64,000 nt of DNA from Streptomyces sp. 1331.2 (GTDB lineage Bacteria > Actinomycetota > Actinomycetes > Streptomycetales > Streptomycetaceae). The stretch is taken from positions 6,131,001 to 6,195,000 of the forward strand of contig NZ_OBMJ01000001.1 of assembly GCF_900199205.1 (NCBI RefSeq), in the 5' to 3' direction. Of this stretch, positions 17,135-23,459 are shown in pieces; within the stretch, counting starts at the first letter, position 1; each line of letters starts with the position of its first letter. The notes under the pieces are model-generated. The model made no database searches. It had not been told where the DNA came from and saw nothing but the letters and a program-made list of their open reading frames with translations. Position numbers and translations under genes: made by a program.

Positions 17135-17524
17135 TCAGCCGGCGGCTGCGGTGGGCTCGTGGTGTTCGGCGGCGGCGCACTCGTCGAGGAGGGGGCGCAT
17201 GCTCTCGTCCACGAGCCGGTAGCGCACCACGCGTCCGTCCTTGTCGCCGGTGACCACGCCGGCCGTGCGGAGCAGGCGCAGGGCCTGGGAGACGGCGGGG
17301 TCGCGCATGCCGGTGGCGACGGCGAGGTCGCTGACGGCGAGCGGGCCGGCGCGGTGCAGGGCGAGCAGCAGGGCGAGCCGCCCGGGGTCGGCGAGCAGGG
17401 AGAACCGCTCGGACCAGGACCGGACGTGCGCGGTGTCGCCGATGGCGGCGATGGCCTCGCAGACCCGGTGTCCGTCGATGGTGCGGTGGCCCGCGCGGTC
17501 GGCCGGTACGAGATGCATGCGCAC
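17135..17524 (-). CDS. ArsR/SmtB-family winged-helix regulator
   Basis: 129 residues. The winged helix is visible in FSLLADPGRLALLLALHRAGPLAVSDLAVATGMRDPAVSQALRLLRTAGVVTGDKDGRVVRYRLVD, typical of metal-sensing ArsR/SmtB repressors. His residues at both ends (MHLV, HRTIDGH, and EHHEP near the C-terminus) could bind a metal. Start is GTG 17524 or ATG 17518. It is transcribed away from the cobalt/nickel transporter and towards the glycosyltransferase-like gene, so nickel or cobalt sensing is a plausible inference. Confidence 0.85.
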   Translation of the reverse strand: MRMHLVPADRAGHRTIDGHRVCEAIAAIGDTAHVRSWSERFSLLADPGRLALLLALHRAGPLAVSDLAVATGMRDPAVSQALRLLRTAGVVTGDKDGRVVRYRLVDESMRPLLDECAAAEHHEPTAAAG

Positions 17525-17602: not shown

Positions 17603-17805
17603 CGGTGTTCCCCGCCGTGGTGCTCGGGAAGACCGGTGACGGACCCTCAGGGGTCCGGATTCCGGAGCGGCCCTCGCCACTGTGATCGGGTCATTCCTTC
17701 GTCCGCGACGGAATGCCGTTCGGGTCCATGACGCCACTGGGTGCCTCGCGCGCCTGGGAAGGCGGGCCCGGACGTCCCGTAAGCCAGGAGACCGGCCACG
17801 GCGCT
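17603..17805 (+). ncRNA. cobalamin (B12) riboswitch
   Basis: The 5' UTR of the transporter has the order of conserved B12-element blocks: GGTGCTCGGGAAGACCGGTGA, then GCCACTGTGATC, CCACTGGGTGCC, TGGGAAGGCGG, and the B12 box AAGCCAGGAGACCGGCC at 17781-17797. Adenosylcobalamin binding normally shuts down the downstream gene. Exact ends are approximate. Its presence argues that the transporter imports cobalt for cobalamin synthesis. Confidence 0.92.
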
Positions 17806-17846
17806 TCACGAAGTCTTTCCACGAGGTGTTGGAGCGTGATCCTGAG

Positions 17847-18962
17847 ATGACCCTGCCCGAAACCATTGCCGACGGGGCGAAGACGGCCCCGTCCGTGCTG
17901 CCGACGTTCAGATGGAGGCGCGAGGACACCGTCCGTACGGCCGGGCTGATGGGGGTGATCCTGGCCATGCACGTGGTGGCCTTCGGGACGCTCATCTTCC
18001 TGGTCGCACCCGAGCGGTACGCGGTCGGTACCCAGGTCTTCGGGGTGGGCCTGGGTATCACCGCGTACACGCTCGGGATGCGGCACGCCTTCGACGCCGA
18101 CCACATCGCGGTGATCGACAACACCACCCGCAAGCTGATGGCGGACGGCAAGCGGCCGGTCTCGGTGGGTTTCTGGTTCGCGCTCGGGCACTCCTCGATG
18201 GTGGTCATCATGGCCGCCCTGGTCGCGGGCGGTGCGCAGCTGGCGAACACGCTGATGGACGACGAGTCGGCCACCCACAAGTGGCTCGGCGTGATCGGGA
18301 CCACCACCTCCGGCGTGTTCCTCTACCTGATCGGCGCGCTCAACCTGGCGGCGCTGCTCGGCATCCTCAAGGTGTTCCGGTCGATGCGGGCGGGGCAGTT
18401 CGACGAGGCGGAGCTGGAGGCGCACCTGGACTCGCGCGGCTTCATGGCCCGGGTGCTGAACCGGGCGACCCGCTCGATCACCCGGCCCGGGCAGATGTTC
18501 CCGGTCGGCATGGTGCTGGGTCTGGGCTTCGACACCGCGACCGAGGTCACCCTGATGGTGATGGCCGGCTCGGGGGCGGCCGCCGGGCTGCCCTGGTACG
18601 CCATCGTCTGCCTGCCGCTGCTGTTCGCGGCCGGGATGAGCCTGTTCGACACGCTGGACGGGACCTTCATGAACTTCGCGTACCAGTGGGCGTTCTCCAA
18701 CCCGGTGCGGAAGGTGTACTACAACCTGACCATCACTGGGCTGTCGATCGCGGTGGCCTTCATCATCGGCACCATCGAGCTGGTCGGGGTGCTGCACGAG
18801 AAGCTCGACCTGACCGACCCGGTGACCGGCTGGATCGCGGACATCTCGCTGGACAACGTCGGCTACGCGATCGCCGGGCTGTTCGTGGTGGTCTGGGCGT
18901 TGGCGATCGGGTACTGGAAGCTGGCCCGGGTCGAGAAGCGCTGGACCCCCCAGGGGGAGTGA
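17847..18962 (+). CDS. NiCoT-family (HoxN/NixA-type) cobalt/nickel permease
   Basis: 371-residue multi-pass membrane protein. The NiCoT metal signature HxxxxDH is in RHAFDADHIAVIDNTTRKLM (about residue 78), and the second motif FALGHSSMVV and the third LGFDTATEV/GMSLFDTLDG are present, giving about eight membrane segments. It imports Ni2+ or Co2+; the B12 riboswitch upstream favours cobalt. The ATG at 17847 follows the riboswitch; longer in-frame reading would translate the riboswitch itself and is rejected. Confidence 0.92.
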   Translation: MTLPETIADGAKTAPSVLPTFRWRREDTVRTAGLMGVILAMHVVAFGTLIFLVAPERYAVGTQVFGVGLGITAYTLGMRHAFDADHIAVIDNTTRKLMADGKRPVSVGFWFALGHSSMVVIMAALVAGGAQLANTLMDDESATHKWLGVIGTTTSGVFLYLIGALNLAALLGILKVFRSMRAGQFDEAELEAHLDSRGFMARVLNRATRSITRPGQMFPVGMVLGLGFDTATEVTLMVMAGSGAAAGLPWYAIVCLPLLFAAGMSLFDTLDGTFMNFAYQWAFSNPVRKVYYNLTITGLSIAVAFIIGTIELVGVLHEKLDLTDPVTGWIADISLDNVGYAIAGLFVVVWALAIGYWKLARVEKRWTPQGE

Positions 18963-20721: not shown

Positions 20722-20970
20722 TCAGTGCCGGTCGCCGTAGCGCTGGCGGAAGCGCTCGACCCGGCCCGCGGTGTCGAGCACGCGGGACTGGCCGGTGTAG
20801 AAGGGGTGGCTCGCCGAGGAGATCTCGACGTCGATCACCGGGTAGGTGTGGCCGTCCTCCCAGTCGACGGTGCGGTCGCTGGTGACCGTCGACCTGGTGA
20901 GGAAGGCGAGGCCGCCGACCTTGTCGCGGAAGACGACCGGGCGGTAGGCGGGGTGGATGCCGGGCTTCAT
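20722..20970 (-). CDS. rpmE2: type B (Cys-free) ribosomal protein L31
   Basis: 82 residues, [17 protein letters not shown]...[22 protein letters not shown]...[10 protein letters not shown]. This is the type B L31, which lacks the zinc-binding cysteines of type A; no Cys is present. Such paralogues replace the zinc form in zinc-starved cells. ATG at 20970; the L33 stop lies 24 bp upstream, so the two are co-transcribed from the Zur-box region. Confidence 0.95.
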
Positions 20971-20994: not shown

Positions 20995-21159
20995 TCAGCG
21001 CTCTTCGCGGAAGTCGACGTGCCGGCCCGCGACCGGGTCGTACTTGCGCAGGACCATCCGGTCCGGGTCGTTGCGGCGGTTCTTGCGGGTCACGTACGTG
21101 AATCCGGTGCCGGCGGTGGAGCGGAGCTTGATGACGGGGCGCAGTTCGCTGCGGGCCAT
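20995..21159 (-). CDS. rpmG: Cys-free ribosomal protein L33
   Basis: 54 residues, [20 protein letters not shown], then [20 protein letters not shown] and [14 protein letters not shown]. No CxxC pairs, so it is the zinc-independent form. AGGAGG lies just upstream of the ATG at 21159. First gene of the leftward L33-L31 unit; its start is about 60 bp from the Zur-like palindrome. Confidence 0.95.
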
Positions 21160-21218: not shown

Positions 21219-21239
21219 AAATGGATGTCATTTTCATTT
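21219..21239. promoter_or_regulatory. candidate Zur box in the divergent promoter region
   Basis: AAATGGATGTCATTTTCATTT is an AT-rich imperfect palindrome (outer arms AAATG/CATTT exact) in very GC-rich DNA. One strand reads ATGAAAATGACATCCAT, close to the actinobacterial Zur consensus recalled as TGAAAATGATTTTCA. It lies between the divergent L33-L31 and L28-S14 units, all zinc-independent paralogues, so zinc-responsive repression of both is a strong inference. Confidence 0.82.
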
Positions 21240-21289: not shown

Positions 21290-21526
21290 ATGTCCGCGCA
21301 CTGCCAGCTCACCGGCCGTCGGCCCGGCTTCGGCAACGCGATCTCGCACTCGCACCGCCGCACCCGCCGCCGCTTCGACCCCAACATCCAGCGCAAGCGC
21401 TACTGGCTGCCCAGCGAAGGCCGGTACGTCCGGCTCGTGCTGAGCGCCAAGGGCATCCGTACCGTCGACACGATCGGCATCGAGGCCGCCGTCGCCCGCA
21501 TCCGGGCCCGGGGGGAGAAGGTCTGA
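21290..21526 (+). CDS. rpmB: zinc-independent ribosomal protein L28 paralogue
   Basis: 78 residues starting [20 protein letters not shown], then [20 protein letters not shown]. In the zinc form the N-terminus has CxxC; here the second Cys is lost (CQLT), so zinc cannot be held in the usual way. ATG at 21290 with GGGAG upstream. First gene of the rightward unit, overlapping rpsN by 1 bp. Confidence 0.95.
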
Positions 21527-21831
21527 TGGCCAAGCAGAGCAAGATCGCCAAGAACGAGCAGCGGCGCGCCGTCGTCGCCCGCTACGCCGAGCGCCGGGCC
21601 GAACTCAAGCGGCTCATCGCCCACCCCGGCACCGACCCCGTCGAGCGCGCCGCCGCGCAGGCCGAACTCGCCCGCCAGCCGCGCGACGCCAGTGCCACCC
21701 GGATCCGCAACCGCGACGCGGTGGACGGCCGACCCCGCGGCTACCTGCGCGCCTTCGGCCTCTCCCGGGTCAACCTGCGCGCCCACGCCCACGCCGGCCA
21801 CCTGCCGGGCGTCCGCAAGGCGAGCTGGTGA
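21526..21831 (+). CDS. rpsN: Cys-free ribosomal protein S14 paralogue
   Basis: 101 residues ([20 protein letters not shown] ... [20 protein letters not shown] ... LPGVRKASW). This is the longer zinc-free S14, without the CxxC-CxxC of the 61-residue zinc form. It overlaps the L28 stop by 1 bp and the next gene by 4 bp (GTGA), so the three are translationally coupled. Confidence 0.96.
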
Positions 21832-23015
21832 GCGGGGTGGACGGCCACCCGGAGCGGATCAAGCTGCCGGTGGTCGTCGTCGCCGGCCTGCACGCCGACG
21901 AACGCCGCGCCGCCGTCGAGGAACTGGCCGCCGCCGCGGTGGACGCGGTGGTGCTGCGGCACGACCTCCGGGACGCCTCGCTCGGCCTCGTCCACCGCGA
22001 ACTGCGGGACGCCGAAGGGGCGTTCGACACCGACGACGTGCCGCTGACCAACGACTGCCCGTGCTGCGCGCTGCGCGAGGACCTGCTGCCCCGGCTGCTG
22101 GAGATCGCCGACGAGGGCCGGTACGGGCTCGCCGTCGTCGAGTTGTGGGGCGGCAGCGACCCGCACCCGGCCGTCGAGGTGATCGCCGCAGGGGAGTCGG
22201 ACGGCCGGGACCTGGCCGACGTCGTCGAGCTCGCGGGCGTGGTCACGGCGGTCGACCCGGACCGGCTGATCGCCGAACTCTCCGTCCCCGACGACCTGGT
22301 GGAGCACGGCGAGCACACCGCCGCCCAGGACGAGCGGACCCGCGCGGAAGCCCTCGCCCACCAGATCGAGTACGCCACCACCCTCGCCGTCCCGCGCGCC
22401 ACGGCGCACACGCCGGGGCTCGCGCTGCTGCGGCAGCTCCACGCCACCGCCCGGGTGGTCCGGCTCGGCACCGGTACCCTCACCCGGGCCGCGCTCGGCG
22501 GCTTCGACGTCGCCGCCGCCCGCGACCGGGTCAACCCGGCGATCGCACTGCTGCCGCAGGACCGCGACGAGGCGGGCGTCGCCACCCTGGTCTGGGAACG
22601 CCGCCGCCCGCTGCACCCGCAGCGGCTGCACGAGGCGCTGGAACTGCTCGTCCCGGCGGCGCAGCGCAGCCGGGGCCGGTTCTGGCTGGCCAACCGGCCG
22701 GACCTGATGCTCGCCTGGGACGCCGCCGGGGCCAACCTCGCGGTCGAGGAGTGCGGGCCCTGGCTCACCTCCCTGCCCGACGCGGCCTGGGAGCTCTACC
22801 CGCCCGCGCGGCGGGCGGCCGCCGCCCTCGACTGGCACCCCCTGCACGGCGACCGGGTGCAGCAGCTCAGCTTCACCGCGGAGGGGCTGGACGTCGACGG
22901 CATCACCGGCCTGCTCGACTCCTGCCTGCTCACCGACGCCGAACTCGCCGCCGGCGAACCCGGCTGGAAGGCCCTGCCGGACGCCTTCCAGGACCTGCTC
23001 GACCCCGTCCACTGA
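21828..23015 (+). CDS. CobW/COG0523-like protein with degenerate nucleotide-binding loop
   Basis: 395 residues. The overall layout is that of CobW/ZNG-type metallochaperone GTPases: N-terminal [20 protein letters not shown] in the place of GFLGAGKTT, the metal motif CPCC in [20 protein letters not shown] (usual CxCC), and a C-terminal CobW_C domain ([44 protein letters not shown]). The Walker A lysine is absent and no NKxD motif is seen, so GTP hydrolysis is doubtful. Its place among zinc-free ribosomal genes implies a zinc-starvation role, perhaps metal handling or binding to a partner. The GTG at 21828 overlaps the S14 stop. Confidence 0.85.
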
Positions 23016-23038
23016 AGAACGAGGAAGTGCCCACCCGC

Positions 23039-23275
23039 ATGCGCAAAACGACCGCCCCGCCGAAGCACCGGCCCAACCCGCTGCTCGCGGCGGGCATCGA
23101 GTACATCGACTACAAGGACACCGACCTGCTGCGCCGCTTCGTCTCGGACCGGGGGAAGATCCGCAGCCGCCGCGTCACCCGCCTCACCGTCCGGCAGCAG
23201 CGGGCTATGGCCCGGGCGATCAGGAACGCCCGCGAGATGGCCCTCCTCCCGTACACCTCCGGTCCCACCCGATAG
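23039..23275 (+). CDS. rpsR: ribosomal protein S18 paralogue
   Basis: 78 residues: [60 protein letters not shown], then [18 protein letters not shown]. Clear S18 with no Cys. Start is the ATG at 23039; an in-frame GTG at 23027 would add four residues and cannot be excluded. It follows the CobW-like gene by 23 bp and precedes L32 by 10 bp. Confidence 0.94.
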
Positions 23276-23285
23276 GAGCCCACCC

Positions 23286-23459
23286 ATGGCCGTACCCAAG
23301 CGCAAGACCTCCCGCAGCAACACCCGGCACCGCCGGGCCCAGTGGAAGGCGACGCCGCCGAGGCTCGTCCCGATCACGGTCGACGGCCGCGAGCTGCTCG
23401 TCCCGCAGAACCTCGTCCCGGCCTACCGGCGCGGGCTGATCGGACCGGGGGAGGTGTAG
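23286..23459 (+). CDS. rpmF: Cys-free ribosomal protein L32 paralogue (57 aa)
   Basis: 57-residue protein [20 protein letters not shown]..., the unmistakable L32 N-terminus, ending [15 protein letters not shown]. The usual L32 cysteines are missing, matching the other members of this cluster. The ATG at 23286 has AGGAG upstream. It is short enough to fall below common ORF cut-offs. Last gene of the rightward zinc-starvation unit; its 3' end is partly duplicated downstream. Confidence 0.95.

What the first reader, a model, noticed from the sequence alone, without database searches (positions are those of the whole stretch)
21828..23015. CobW-like protein that has lost its GTPase P-loop but kept the CxCC metal motif
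The Walker A position reads GLHADERRA rather than GxxGxGKTT and no NKxD is present, while CPCC and the CobW_C domain remain. It is coupled by GTGA to S14. A nucleotide-independent zinc sensor or adaptor in the zinc-starvation response is possible and little described.
Basis: partly seen in the sequence, partly recalled or inferred. Interest (0 to 1): 0.6.

Follow-up and report, generated by a model that had tools for sequence, protein, structure and literature searches.

The report
Zinc-starvation pseudo-GTPase beside ribosomal genes
A soil bacterium carries, among genes for zinc-free spare ribosome parts, a metal-binding protein that has lost its energy-using site; it looks like a distant relative of a mycobacterial protein that helps put ribosomes to sleep when zinc runs out.

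Summary
Window 21828-23015 (+) encodes a 395-aa COG0523/CobW-type protein. The Walker A position reads GLHADERRA, NKxD is PRAT, no other P-loop was found; CPCC and CobW_C remain. It lies among zinc-free ribosomal protein genes (L28-S14-this-S18-L32), with a Zur-box-like site upstream.

The loss is not peculiar to this gene. Of 83 COG0523-like proteins read in the class, 71 (12 family codes) lack the P-loop; the 53 put in a tree form one 100/100 branch that includes mycobacterial MRF. MRF is published as the zinc-gated recruiter of hibernation factor Mpy, and its lack of GTPase motifs was reported in 2009. NCBIfam's MRF model is the best hit, but far below cut-off (205 vs 375 bits).

Seen here: the lineage reaches well beyond mycobacteria; the branch of the window's order keeps all three cysteines (31 of 32 versus 0 of 39 elsewhere) and a conserved GxHxxxR; His45 replaces Asn in 51 of 54 rows; the gene co-occurs with zinc-free S14 (37 of 38 genomes versus 0 of 22).

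Most likely it works like MRF: a nucleotide-independent zinc switch acting on ribosome hibernation. Inferred, not shown.

The parts
21828..23015 (+). MRF-like COG0523 pseudo-GTPase, 395 aa, GTG start overlapping the S14 stop
   Evidence: Pfam cobW (partial) and CobW_C; best NCBIfam hit NF047431 MRF, 205 bits, cut-off 375; AlphaFold2 pLDDT 94.9, pTM 0.92, closest solved fold YjiA
21885..21911 (+). degenerate Walker A, residues 20-28 GLHADERRA (GFLGAGKTT in P-loop paralogues)
   Evidence: alignment; G20, H22 and R26 in 38 of 38 rows of the window's order and of family code f19
21960..21962 (+). His45, conserved His in place of the Asn of P-loop paralogues; candidate metal ligand (inference)
   Evidence: H in 51 of 54 P-loop-less rows, N in 8 of 8 P-loop rows
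22056..22067 (+). CPCC metal motif, residues 77-80
   Evidence: C77 and C80 invariant in all 62 rows of alignment A1; C79 in 25 of 25 rows of the order and 0 of 29 other P-loop-less rows
22392..22403 (+). degenerate NKxD position, residues 189-192 PRAT
   Evidence: alignment
22581..22928 (+). CobW_C domain, residues 252-367
   Evidence: 52.2 bits, cut-off 22
21222..21236 (.). Zur-box-like palindrome TGGATGTCATTTTCA between the divergent L33 and L28 genes
   Evidence: 2 mismatches to the Zur-box published for S. coelicolor (passage); a like site at the same place in most relatives
21290..21526 (+). zinc-free L28 (rpmB), first gene of the putative operon
   Evidence: Pfam L28; only one Cys in the protein
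21526..21831 (+). zinc-free long-type S14 (rpsN), no Cys
   Evidence: the genome also has a type-Z-length S14 with four Cys
23027..23275 (+). zinc-free S18 (rpsR), no Cys
   Evidence: sequence
23286..23459 (+). zinc-free L32 (rpmF), no Cys
   Evidence: sequence
20995..21159 (-). zinc-free L33 (rpmG), divergent, no Cys
   Evidence: sequence
20722..20970 (-). type B L31 (rpmE2), divergent, no Cys
   Evidence: sequence

Best explanation
It is a pseudo-GTPase of the COG0523 fold, on the same branch as mycobacterial MRF, and it most likely works like MRF. Shown here: the GTPase motifs are gone, the metal cysteines are kept, and the gene lies in a row of zinc-free ribosomal protein genes behind a Zur-box-like site. 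Inferred: under zinc sufficiency Zur keeps the operon off, and any protein made binds zinc through C77/C79/C80 (with His45 as a possible extra ligand) and is inactive or destroyed. When zinc falls, the operon is induced, the protein stays metal-free, and it helps the cell's single long HPF settle on ribosomes rebuilt with the zinc-free proteins. No nucleotide cycle is needed: zinc occupancy is the switch.
For: Best NCBIfam match is MRF, over the whole protein, 205.1 bits against 181.1 for ZigA; the genome's own P-loop paralogue scores the other way, ZigA 523 against MRF 127. With the Walker A and NKxD columns removed, the 53 P-loop-less rows, window and mycobacterial MRFs included, are one side of a 100/100 branch among 65 of the 83 proteins, and 47 are one branch, 100/100, in a 73-row tree rooted on other COG0523 proteins (L096 and 11 other rows of the first tree left out). 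Zinc-free ribosomal genes within 1.4 kb: 64 of 70 P-loop-less against 2 of 12 P-loop proteins (2 of 11; the twelfth placed). Zinc-free S14 (E < 1e-30) is in 38 of 60 genomes of the order; an MRF-like gene (over 225 bits) is in 37 of these 38 and in 0 of the other 22; the exception G011 keeps a shortened remnant between S14 and S18, and G014 has decayed remnants of both. One HPF was found in the genome, of the long type. In mycobacteria MRF sits in the same kind of operon, is zinc- and Zur-regulated, recruits Mpy, and its zinc-bound form is degraded by Clp (passages). In CobW it is the guanine nucleotide that creates the metal site (passage), so a COG0523 protein without a nucleotide site must hold metal differently.
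Against: The window protein misses NCBIfam's MRF cut-off by 170 bits and beats ZigA by only 24 bits; it is 30-32% identical to the mycobacterial rows of A1. It keeps CPCC where the 12 mycobacterial-type MRFs have CxxC with another middle residue. Nothing here shows binding to HPF, ribosome or zinc, nor Clp turnover. Nearness to ribosomal genes is partly shared by P-loop COG0523 proteins: within 2.3 kb 24 of 30 P-loop-less against 3 of 11 P-loop proteins (4 of 12 with the one placed); 7 of 27 named Kitasatospora-type loci carry a ZigA-like P-loop gene inside the row, and some P-loop proteins of other classes also have such neighbours. The Zur-box match alone is not telling in the window: 10 other sites score as well or better.
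Confidence: 0.6

Rival explanations
1. A zinc handler or adaptor of another kind: it binds zinc without nucleotide and either hands it to a client or signals through a partner other than HPF, for example in assembling zinc-free ribosomes.
For: The COG0523 relatives are described as metal chaperones (passage); CxCC is complete in the branch of the window's order; the neighbouring genes are ribosomal proteins and not HPF, so an assembly role would fit the neighbourhood equally well.
Against: In characterised CobW the tight metal site needs Mg-GTP (passage), so a chaperone cycle without GTP lacks its driver; the one protein on the same branch whose role I found described, MRF, is a hibernation recruiter (passage).
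Confidence: 0.22
2. It still binds a nucleotide in an unorthodox way (non-hydrolysing pseudo-GTPase, possibly through the conserved H22/R26 loop).
For: The loop keeps its length and gains GxHxxxR in 38 of 38 rows of the order and f19, with Arg at the Lys position; ExxG survives in the window protein itself; two sister proteins, L132 and L133, keep a P-loop.
Against: NKxD is gone in all 53 P-loop-less rows aligned; in other families of the branch the loop is shortened or of unrelated sequence; the Gly of ExxG is Asp in 24 of 25 rows of the order.
Confidence: 0.1
3. A decaying gene without function.
For: Catalytic motifs are lost; remnants exist in G011 and G014 and a split frame in L174.
Against: Full-length open frame and strong codon bias; 30-59% identity to the other P-loop-less rows of A1 and invariant C77, C80, P261, R266, E372; near-perfect co-occurrence with zinc-free S14.
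Confidence: 0.03

Closest known systems
MRF, Mpy recruitment factor of mycobacteria (MSMEG_6069, Rv0106; NCBIfam NF047431)
   Same: COG0523 fold without GTPase motifs; gene beside zinc-free ribosomal protein genes; Zur-type control (published for MRF, a site only for the window); CxxC cysteines; same 100/100 branch
   Different: Window protein is below the MRF cut-off (205 vs 375), keeps the middle Cys (CPCC), has GLHxxxR where many MRFs have a shortened loop, and sits between S14 and S18 instead of divergent to L28
ZigA/ZagA-type zinc metallochaperone GTPases (NCBIfam NF038288)
   Same: Same two-domain fold, CxCC, zinc-starvation context
   Different: The 12 P-loop proteins read in the class have GFLGxGKT, and [NT]KxD in 11 of 12; they fall on the other side of the main branch; the window genome has one such paralogue at G000:C1:6770126, 523 bits against the ZigA cut-off of 600
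E. coli YjiA (PDB 1nij, 4ixm, 4ixn)
   Same: Best structural match, Foldseek E 1.8e-13 to 4.4e-13, VIA-align Z 12.2-13.4 over 266-273 residues; CxCC aligned
   Different: YjiA has verified GTPase activity (passage); 14-16% identity; overall rmsd is high (8.4-10.1 A), so the domains are probably placed differently (inference)
CobW, cobalt chaperone
   Same: CobW_C domain and nucleotide-domain fold
   Different: CobW metal binding depends on Mg and guanine nucleotide (passage); TIGR02475 scores only 18 bits against a 332 cut-off

Membership tests
MRF (NCBIfam NF047431 equivalog) | Score over the curated cut-off of 375 bits | tested here: not met
   205.1 bits; only 12 of 246 class genomes hold a protein over the cut-off, all in family code f6
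MRF (NCBIfam NF047431 equivalog) | Same branch as known MRFs, apart from P-loop COG0523 proteins | tested here: met
   100/100 branch with the motif columns removed
MRF (NCBIfam NF047431 equivalog) | No Walker A and no NKxD (despite 'GTPase' in the family name) | tested here: met
   Window; 12 of 12 over-cut-off proteins also lack both
MRF (NCBIfam NF047431 equivalog) | Gene in or beside the zinc-free ribosomal protein genes | tested here: met
MRF (NCBIfam NF047431 equivalog) | Zur control | tested here: inconclusive
   Zur-box-like site at the expected place, conserved in position; no expression data
MRF (NCBIfam NF047431 equivalog) | Recruits the hibernation factor; zinc-bound form degraded by Clp | not testable with these tools
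   One long HPF is present in the genome; binding and turnover need experiments
COG0523 / G3E P-loop GTPases | GxxGxGK[ST] Walker A | tested here: not met
   GLHADERRA at the aligned place, none elsewhere
COG0523 / G3E P-loop GTPases | [NTS]KxD | tested here: not met
   PRAT at the aligned place, none elsewhere
COG0523 / G3E P-loop GTPases | hhhExxG | tested here: inconclusive
   VVELWG in the window, but the Gly is Asp in 24 of 25 rows of the order
COG0523 / G3E P-loop GTPases | CxCC metal motif | tested here: met
   C77-P-C79-C80
COG0523 / G3E P-loop GTPases | YjiA-like two-domain fold with CobW_C | tested here: met

The most novel reading that the evidence does not exclude
Across Actinomycetota a whole lineage of former GTPases has become nucleotide-free zinc switches of the ribosome: the metal site, which in CobW is made by Mg-GTP, was rebuilt with a fixed His45 beside the cysteines, so that zinc alone decides whether zinc-free ribosomes are put into hibernation. 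The window's order keeps a three-cysteine version, and some Kitasatospora add a further copy that has lost the cysteines too and could be a zinc-blind partner.
Probability: 0.25. Interest if true: 0.6.

Novelty: new variant of a known kind. Interest (0 to 1): 0.42.

Why it matters
MRF is described, in the papers that I could see, as a mycobacterial factor. If this family works alike, zinc-gated ribosome hibernation is an old actinobacterial trait that can be studied in harmless, genetically tractable Streptomyces and Kitasatospora, and it matters for how antibiotic producers survive zinc shortage. The case also shows how a nucleotide-dependent metal chaperone can turn into a nucleotide-free sensor, with P-loop paralogues and a P-loop-keeping sister pair for comparison. 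Practically, NCBIfam calls MRF a 'GTPase', yet none of the 12 over-cut-off proteins that I read has a P-loop, so that name should be looked at again.

Tried and rejected
Considered and rejected: an alternative P-loop elsewhere in the protein (none by pattern); ordinary ZigA/CobW (motifs absent, lower score, other side of the tree); a locus-specific pseudogene (family-wide conservation).

Failures and repairs of my own: the first extraction of relatives ignored strand and gave nonsense for minus-strand loci; it was replaced. In one search the L28 and S18 queries were out of frame, so its context lists for those two are worthless; they were redone with correct frames. My first P-loop pattern (GxxGxGK[ST]) missed L133, whose loop is GFLRAGKS; it was widened. 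In one search one P-loop protein (L067b) could not be placed and one P-loop-less protein had too little flank; L067b was placed (no ribosomal gene within 1.4 kb by my rule, L28 within 2.3 kb). For trees I left out 18 of the 83 proteins, all near-relatives in the order, and 12 rows of the first tree, L096 among them, in the second.

Results that weaken the neat picture: in the window 11 sites match the Zur-box at up to 2 mismatches against 1.5 expected from shuffles, 10 of them elsewhere, so the score alone proves nothing. The shuffled control uses single-base shuffles at whole-locus composition, while the intergenic gap may be richer in A+T. Some loci (L005; L032 has no L28 hit) have no such site upstream of L28. 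One protein of another class (L143) has also lost its P-loop, is on a long branch and cannot be placed; the data do not reject it as kin of the P-loop-keeping L132/L133 (AU p 0.58), so the loss may have happened more than once. The sister position of L132/L133 (100/99) involves long branches, and L133 scores higher with ZigA (221) than with MRF (159). Six of 70 P-loop-less proteins had no ribosomal gene within 1.4 kb. G038 has a frame-broken zinc-free S14 and no MRF-like gene. In a phylum-wide search 35 of 296 genomes matched; of the proteins that I read from other classes most have a P-loop, and full-length P-loop-less ones were only L134 and L135 (both f54), so the lineage is common in the class but sparse outside it. 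The VIA-align table is a second look and its silence about other folds excludes nothing; after YjiA it lists other G3E and SRP GTPases over the N-terminal domain. No atomic coordinates were available to me, so the geometry of His45 and the cysteines was not tested.

Papers: the primary MRF papers (PMC6094098, PMC7431043), a review (PMC8131030) and the two S. coelicolor Zur/ribosomal papers (PMC1913420, PMC1913400) are not held; I used only passages of PMC13418864, PMC7174638, PMC2770081, PMC5912738, PMC5472717, PMC7895991 and PMC9164220, and search listings for the rest. I therefore do not claim that the Streptomyces or Kitasatospora protein is unmentioned in print; in the listings I saw no paper on it.

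Full report
What is there. The window is part of an unnamed 8.43-Mb genome (G000, contig C1, 6131001-6195000). Its closest named relatives by this protein are Kitasatospora strains and records titled Streptomyces, up to 91% identity (27 loci), so the window's order is taken to be Streptomycetales (inference). Window 21828-23015 (+) encodes 395 aa from a GTG that overlaps the S14 stop codon. Downstream come S18 (23027) and L32 (23286), upstream L28 (21290) and S14 (21526); divergent from them are L33 and type B L31 (Pfam/NCBIfam). These copies lack the zinc cysteines (only L28 keeps a single Cys), and the genome has a second, 61-aa S14 with four cysteines. This is the zinc-free (C-) ribosomal protein set known from zinc-starvation operons.

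The observation. Pfam sees cobW only from profile position 55 on, i.e. without the P-loop part, plus CobW_C. Aligned with P-loop paralogues, GFLGAGKTT is [13 protein letters not shown] is PRAT, ESSG is ELWG, NGCICC is NDCPCC. No other P-loop or NKxD pattern occurs anywhere in the protein. AlphaFold2 on an alignment of 62 rows gives pLDDT 94.9 and pTM 0.92; the only solved chains with Foldseek E up to 0.001 are the three YjiA entries (E 1.8e-13 to 4.4e-13, next hit 1.7e-3). VIA-align gives them Z 12.2-13.4 over 266-273 residues at a high rmsd of 8.4-8.8 A, probably because two domains are superposed together (inference); other G3E GTPases follow at Z about 10 over the N-terminal domain. So the fold is that of a COG0523 GTPase and the motifs of one are missing.

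How general it is. A search of 60 genomes of the order found a match in 38. All 30 loci first fetched have GxHxxxR at the loop, with Arg at the Lys place, and keep CxCC (recounted). A class-wide search with the NCBIfam MRF model matched 74 of 246 genomes at E <= 1e-15, 12 over the cut-off, all in one family code (f6, presumably Mycobacteriaceae: inference); it also rang, below the cut-off, in 6 of 14 control genomes. From the loci that I fetched out of these two searches I read 83 proteins: 71 without P-loop in 12 family codes and 12 with it. All 12 over-cut-off MRFs lack the P-loop, in line with the printed remark that Rv0106 lacks the GTPase motifs and has CXSC (PMC2770081, passages). Outside the class the type is sparse: a phylum-wide search matched 35 of 296 genomes, most of the proteins that I read from other classes have a P-loop, and full-length P-loop-less ones were L134 and L135 only.

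Descent. In a tree of 65 of these 83 proteins, with Walker A and NKxD columns taken out, P-loop-less (53) and P-loop (12) proteins are separated by one branch with 100/100 support. In a 73-row tree rooted on other COG0523 proteins the 47 P-loop-less rows are again one branch, 100/100; their sister is a pair from another class, L132 and L133, which keep a P-loop (GVPGAGKS, GFLRAGKS) but have lost NKxD, and L132 lies beside L28, L31 and L33. This suggests that NKxD went first and the P-loop later, in a gene already tied to the zinc-free set; but the branches are long, L133 scores higher with ZigA than with MRF, and a third protein of that order, L143, has a ruined P-loop of its own, so more than one loss is possible.

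Ties to the zinc-free ribosome. Within 1.4 kb, 64 of 70 P-loop-less proteins have a zinc-free ribosomal gene, against 2 of 12 P-loop proteins (with one placed later); within 2.3 kb, where fewer loci have flank enough, 24 of 30 against 4 of 12. Zinc-free S14 at E < 1e-30 is in 38 of 60 genomes of the order, and an MRF-like gene (over 225 bits, four of them matched in two pieces of one open frame) in 37 of these 38 and in 0 of the 22 others. The one exception, G011, has a shortened remnant between S14 and S18; G014 has broken remnants of both genes; G038 has a frame-broken S14 without the MRF-like gene. Phylogeny and linkage inflate such a count, but presence and absence clearly go together. Against exclusiveness: 7 of 27 named loci have a ZigA-like P-loop gene between S18 and L32, and a few P-loop proteins of other classes also neighbour these ribosomal genes. 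Gene order also differs between genera: in most loci of the family (g2) the gene follows L33-L31 on the strand opposite to L28-S14.

Control. Between L33 and L28 lies TGGATGTCATTTTCA (21222-21236), 2 mismatches from the Zur-box tGaNNatSatNNtCa found by ChIP in S. coelicolor, where rpmG/B is a Zur target (PMC5472717, passages). In 31 loci of the order a site of at least 9 of 11 fixed letters lies within 250 bp upstream of the L28 match in 23 (one, in L019, may be inside a gene), against 1 of 155 shuffled 250-bp stretches; in the window itself sites of this score are not rare. Position, more than score, is the evidence.

The metal site. C77 and C80 are invariant in all 62 rows of A1. The middle Cys is kept in 31 of 32 P-loop-less proteins of the order (the exception, L096, has no CxxC at all) and in 0 of 39 elsewhere, where it is mostly Ser or Thr. 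His45 stands in 51 of 54 P-loop-less rows where all 8 P-loop rows have Asn. YjiA's zinc site was probed by the mutant E37A/C66A/C67A (title of 4ixn), and window C79/C80 align with C66/C67 in a weak match (E 0.054). In CobW, Mg and guanine nucleotide preassemble the metal site (PMC7895991, passages). I infer that the lineage rebuilt its site without nucleotide, with His45 as a candidate ligand. Five named loci carry a further COG0523-like gene that lacks both P-loop and CxxC, and it lacks His45 too, as does L096: the His and the Cys go together, though this is probably only one or two events.

How it most likely works. In mycobacteria MRF is induced with the zinc-free operon, recruits the hibernation factor Mpy to zinc-free ribosomes, and its zinc-bound form is degraded through Clp (PMC13418864, PMC7174638, passages). 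The window protein shares branch, losses, metal cysteines and neighbourhood, and one HPF was found in its genome, of the long two-domain kind. So it most likely works like MRF (0.6). It should not be filed as an MRF under NCBIfam's definition: 205 bits against a cut-off of 375. A zinc adaptor with another client (0.22), a nucleotide-binding pseudo-GTPase (0.1) or a dying gene (0.03) are the rivals.

Novelty. The loss of GTPase motifs in this kind of protein is known, and so is the role of MRF. What I did not see in the passages and listings of the papers that I could search (key papers not held) is the breadth of the lineage, the CxCC-keeping variant with GxHxxxR, the His45 change, the P-loop-keeping sister proteins and the doubly degenerate copies. 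I rate it a new variant of a known kind, interest 0.42.

Noticed in passing
L165, L168, L170, L171, L173 (minus strand, beside L31); also L096: A further COG0523-like protein with neither P-loop (GGLATGVRD-type loop) nor CxxC nor His45, in the same zinc-starvation cluster of several Kitasatospora; 33-36% identical to the window protein. A doubly degenerate, possibly zinc-blind copy; not found in the window genome.
   Followed up: partly
L164, L165, L167, L168, L169, L171, L173: A ZigA-like P-loop COG0523 gene lies between S18 and L32, so GTPase and pseudo-GTPase share one row of genes.
   Followed up: partly
L132 (G402), L133 (G499): P-loop-keeping sisters of the pseudo-GTPase branch in another class, with NKxD already lost; L132 is beside L28/L31/L33.
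   Followed up: partly
L148 (G011), L149 (G014), L150 (G038): Natural decay: a shortened MRF-like remnant between zinc-free S14 and S18 in G011, broken remnants of S14 and MRF-like gene in G014, a frame-broken S14 in G038.
   Followed up: partly
window 17135-17524 (-) and 17682-18962 (+): An ArsR/SmtB-type metalloregulator divergent from a NicT-type nickel transporter, the latter ending about 1.8 kb before L31: a second metal locus close by.
   Followed up: no
NCBIfam NF047431: The family is named 'GTPase MRF', but 12 of 12 over-cut-off proteins read here have no P-loop.
   Followed up: yes
L174 (Streptacidiphilus sp. 4-A2): The MRF-like gene is split over two frames (frameshift or sequencing error).
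   Followed up: no
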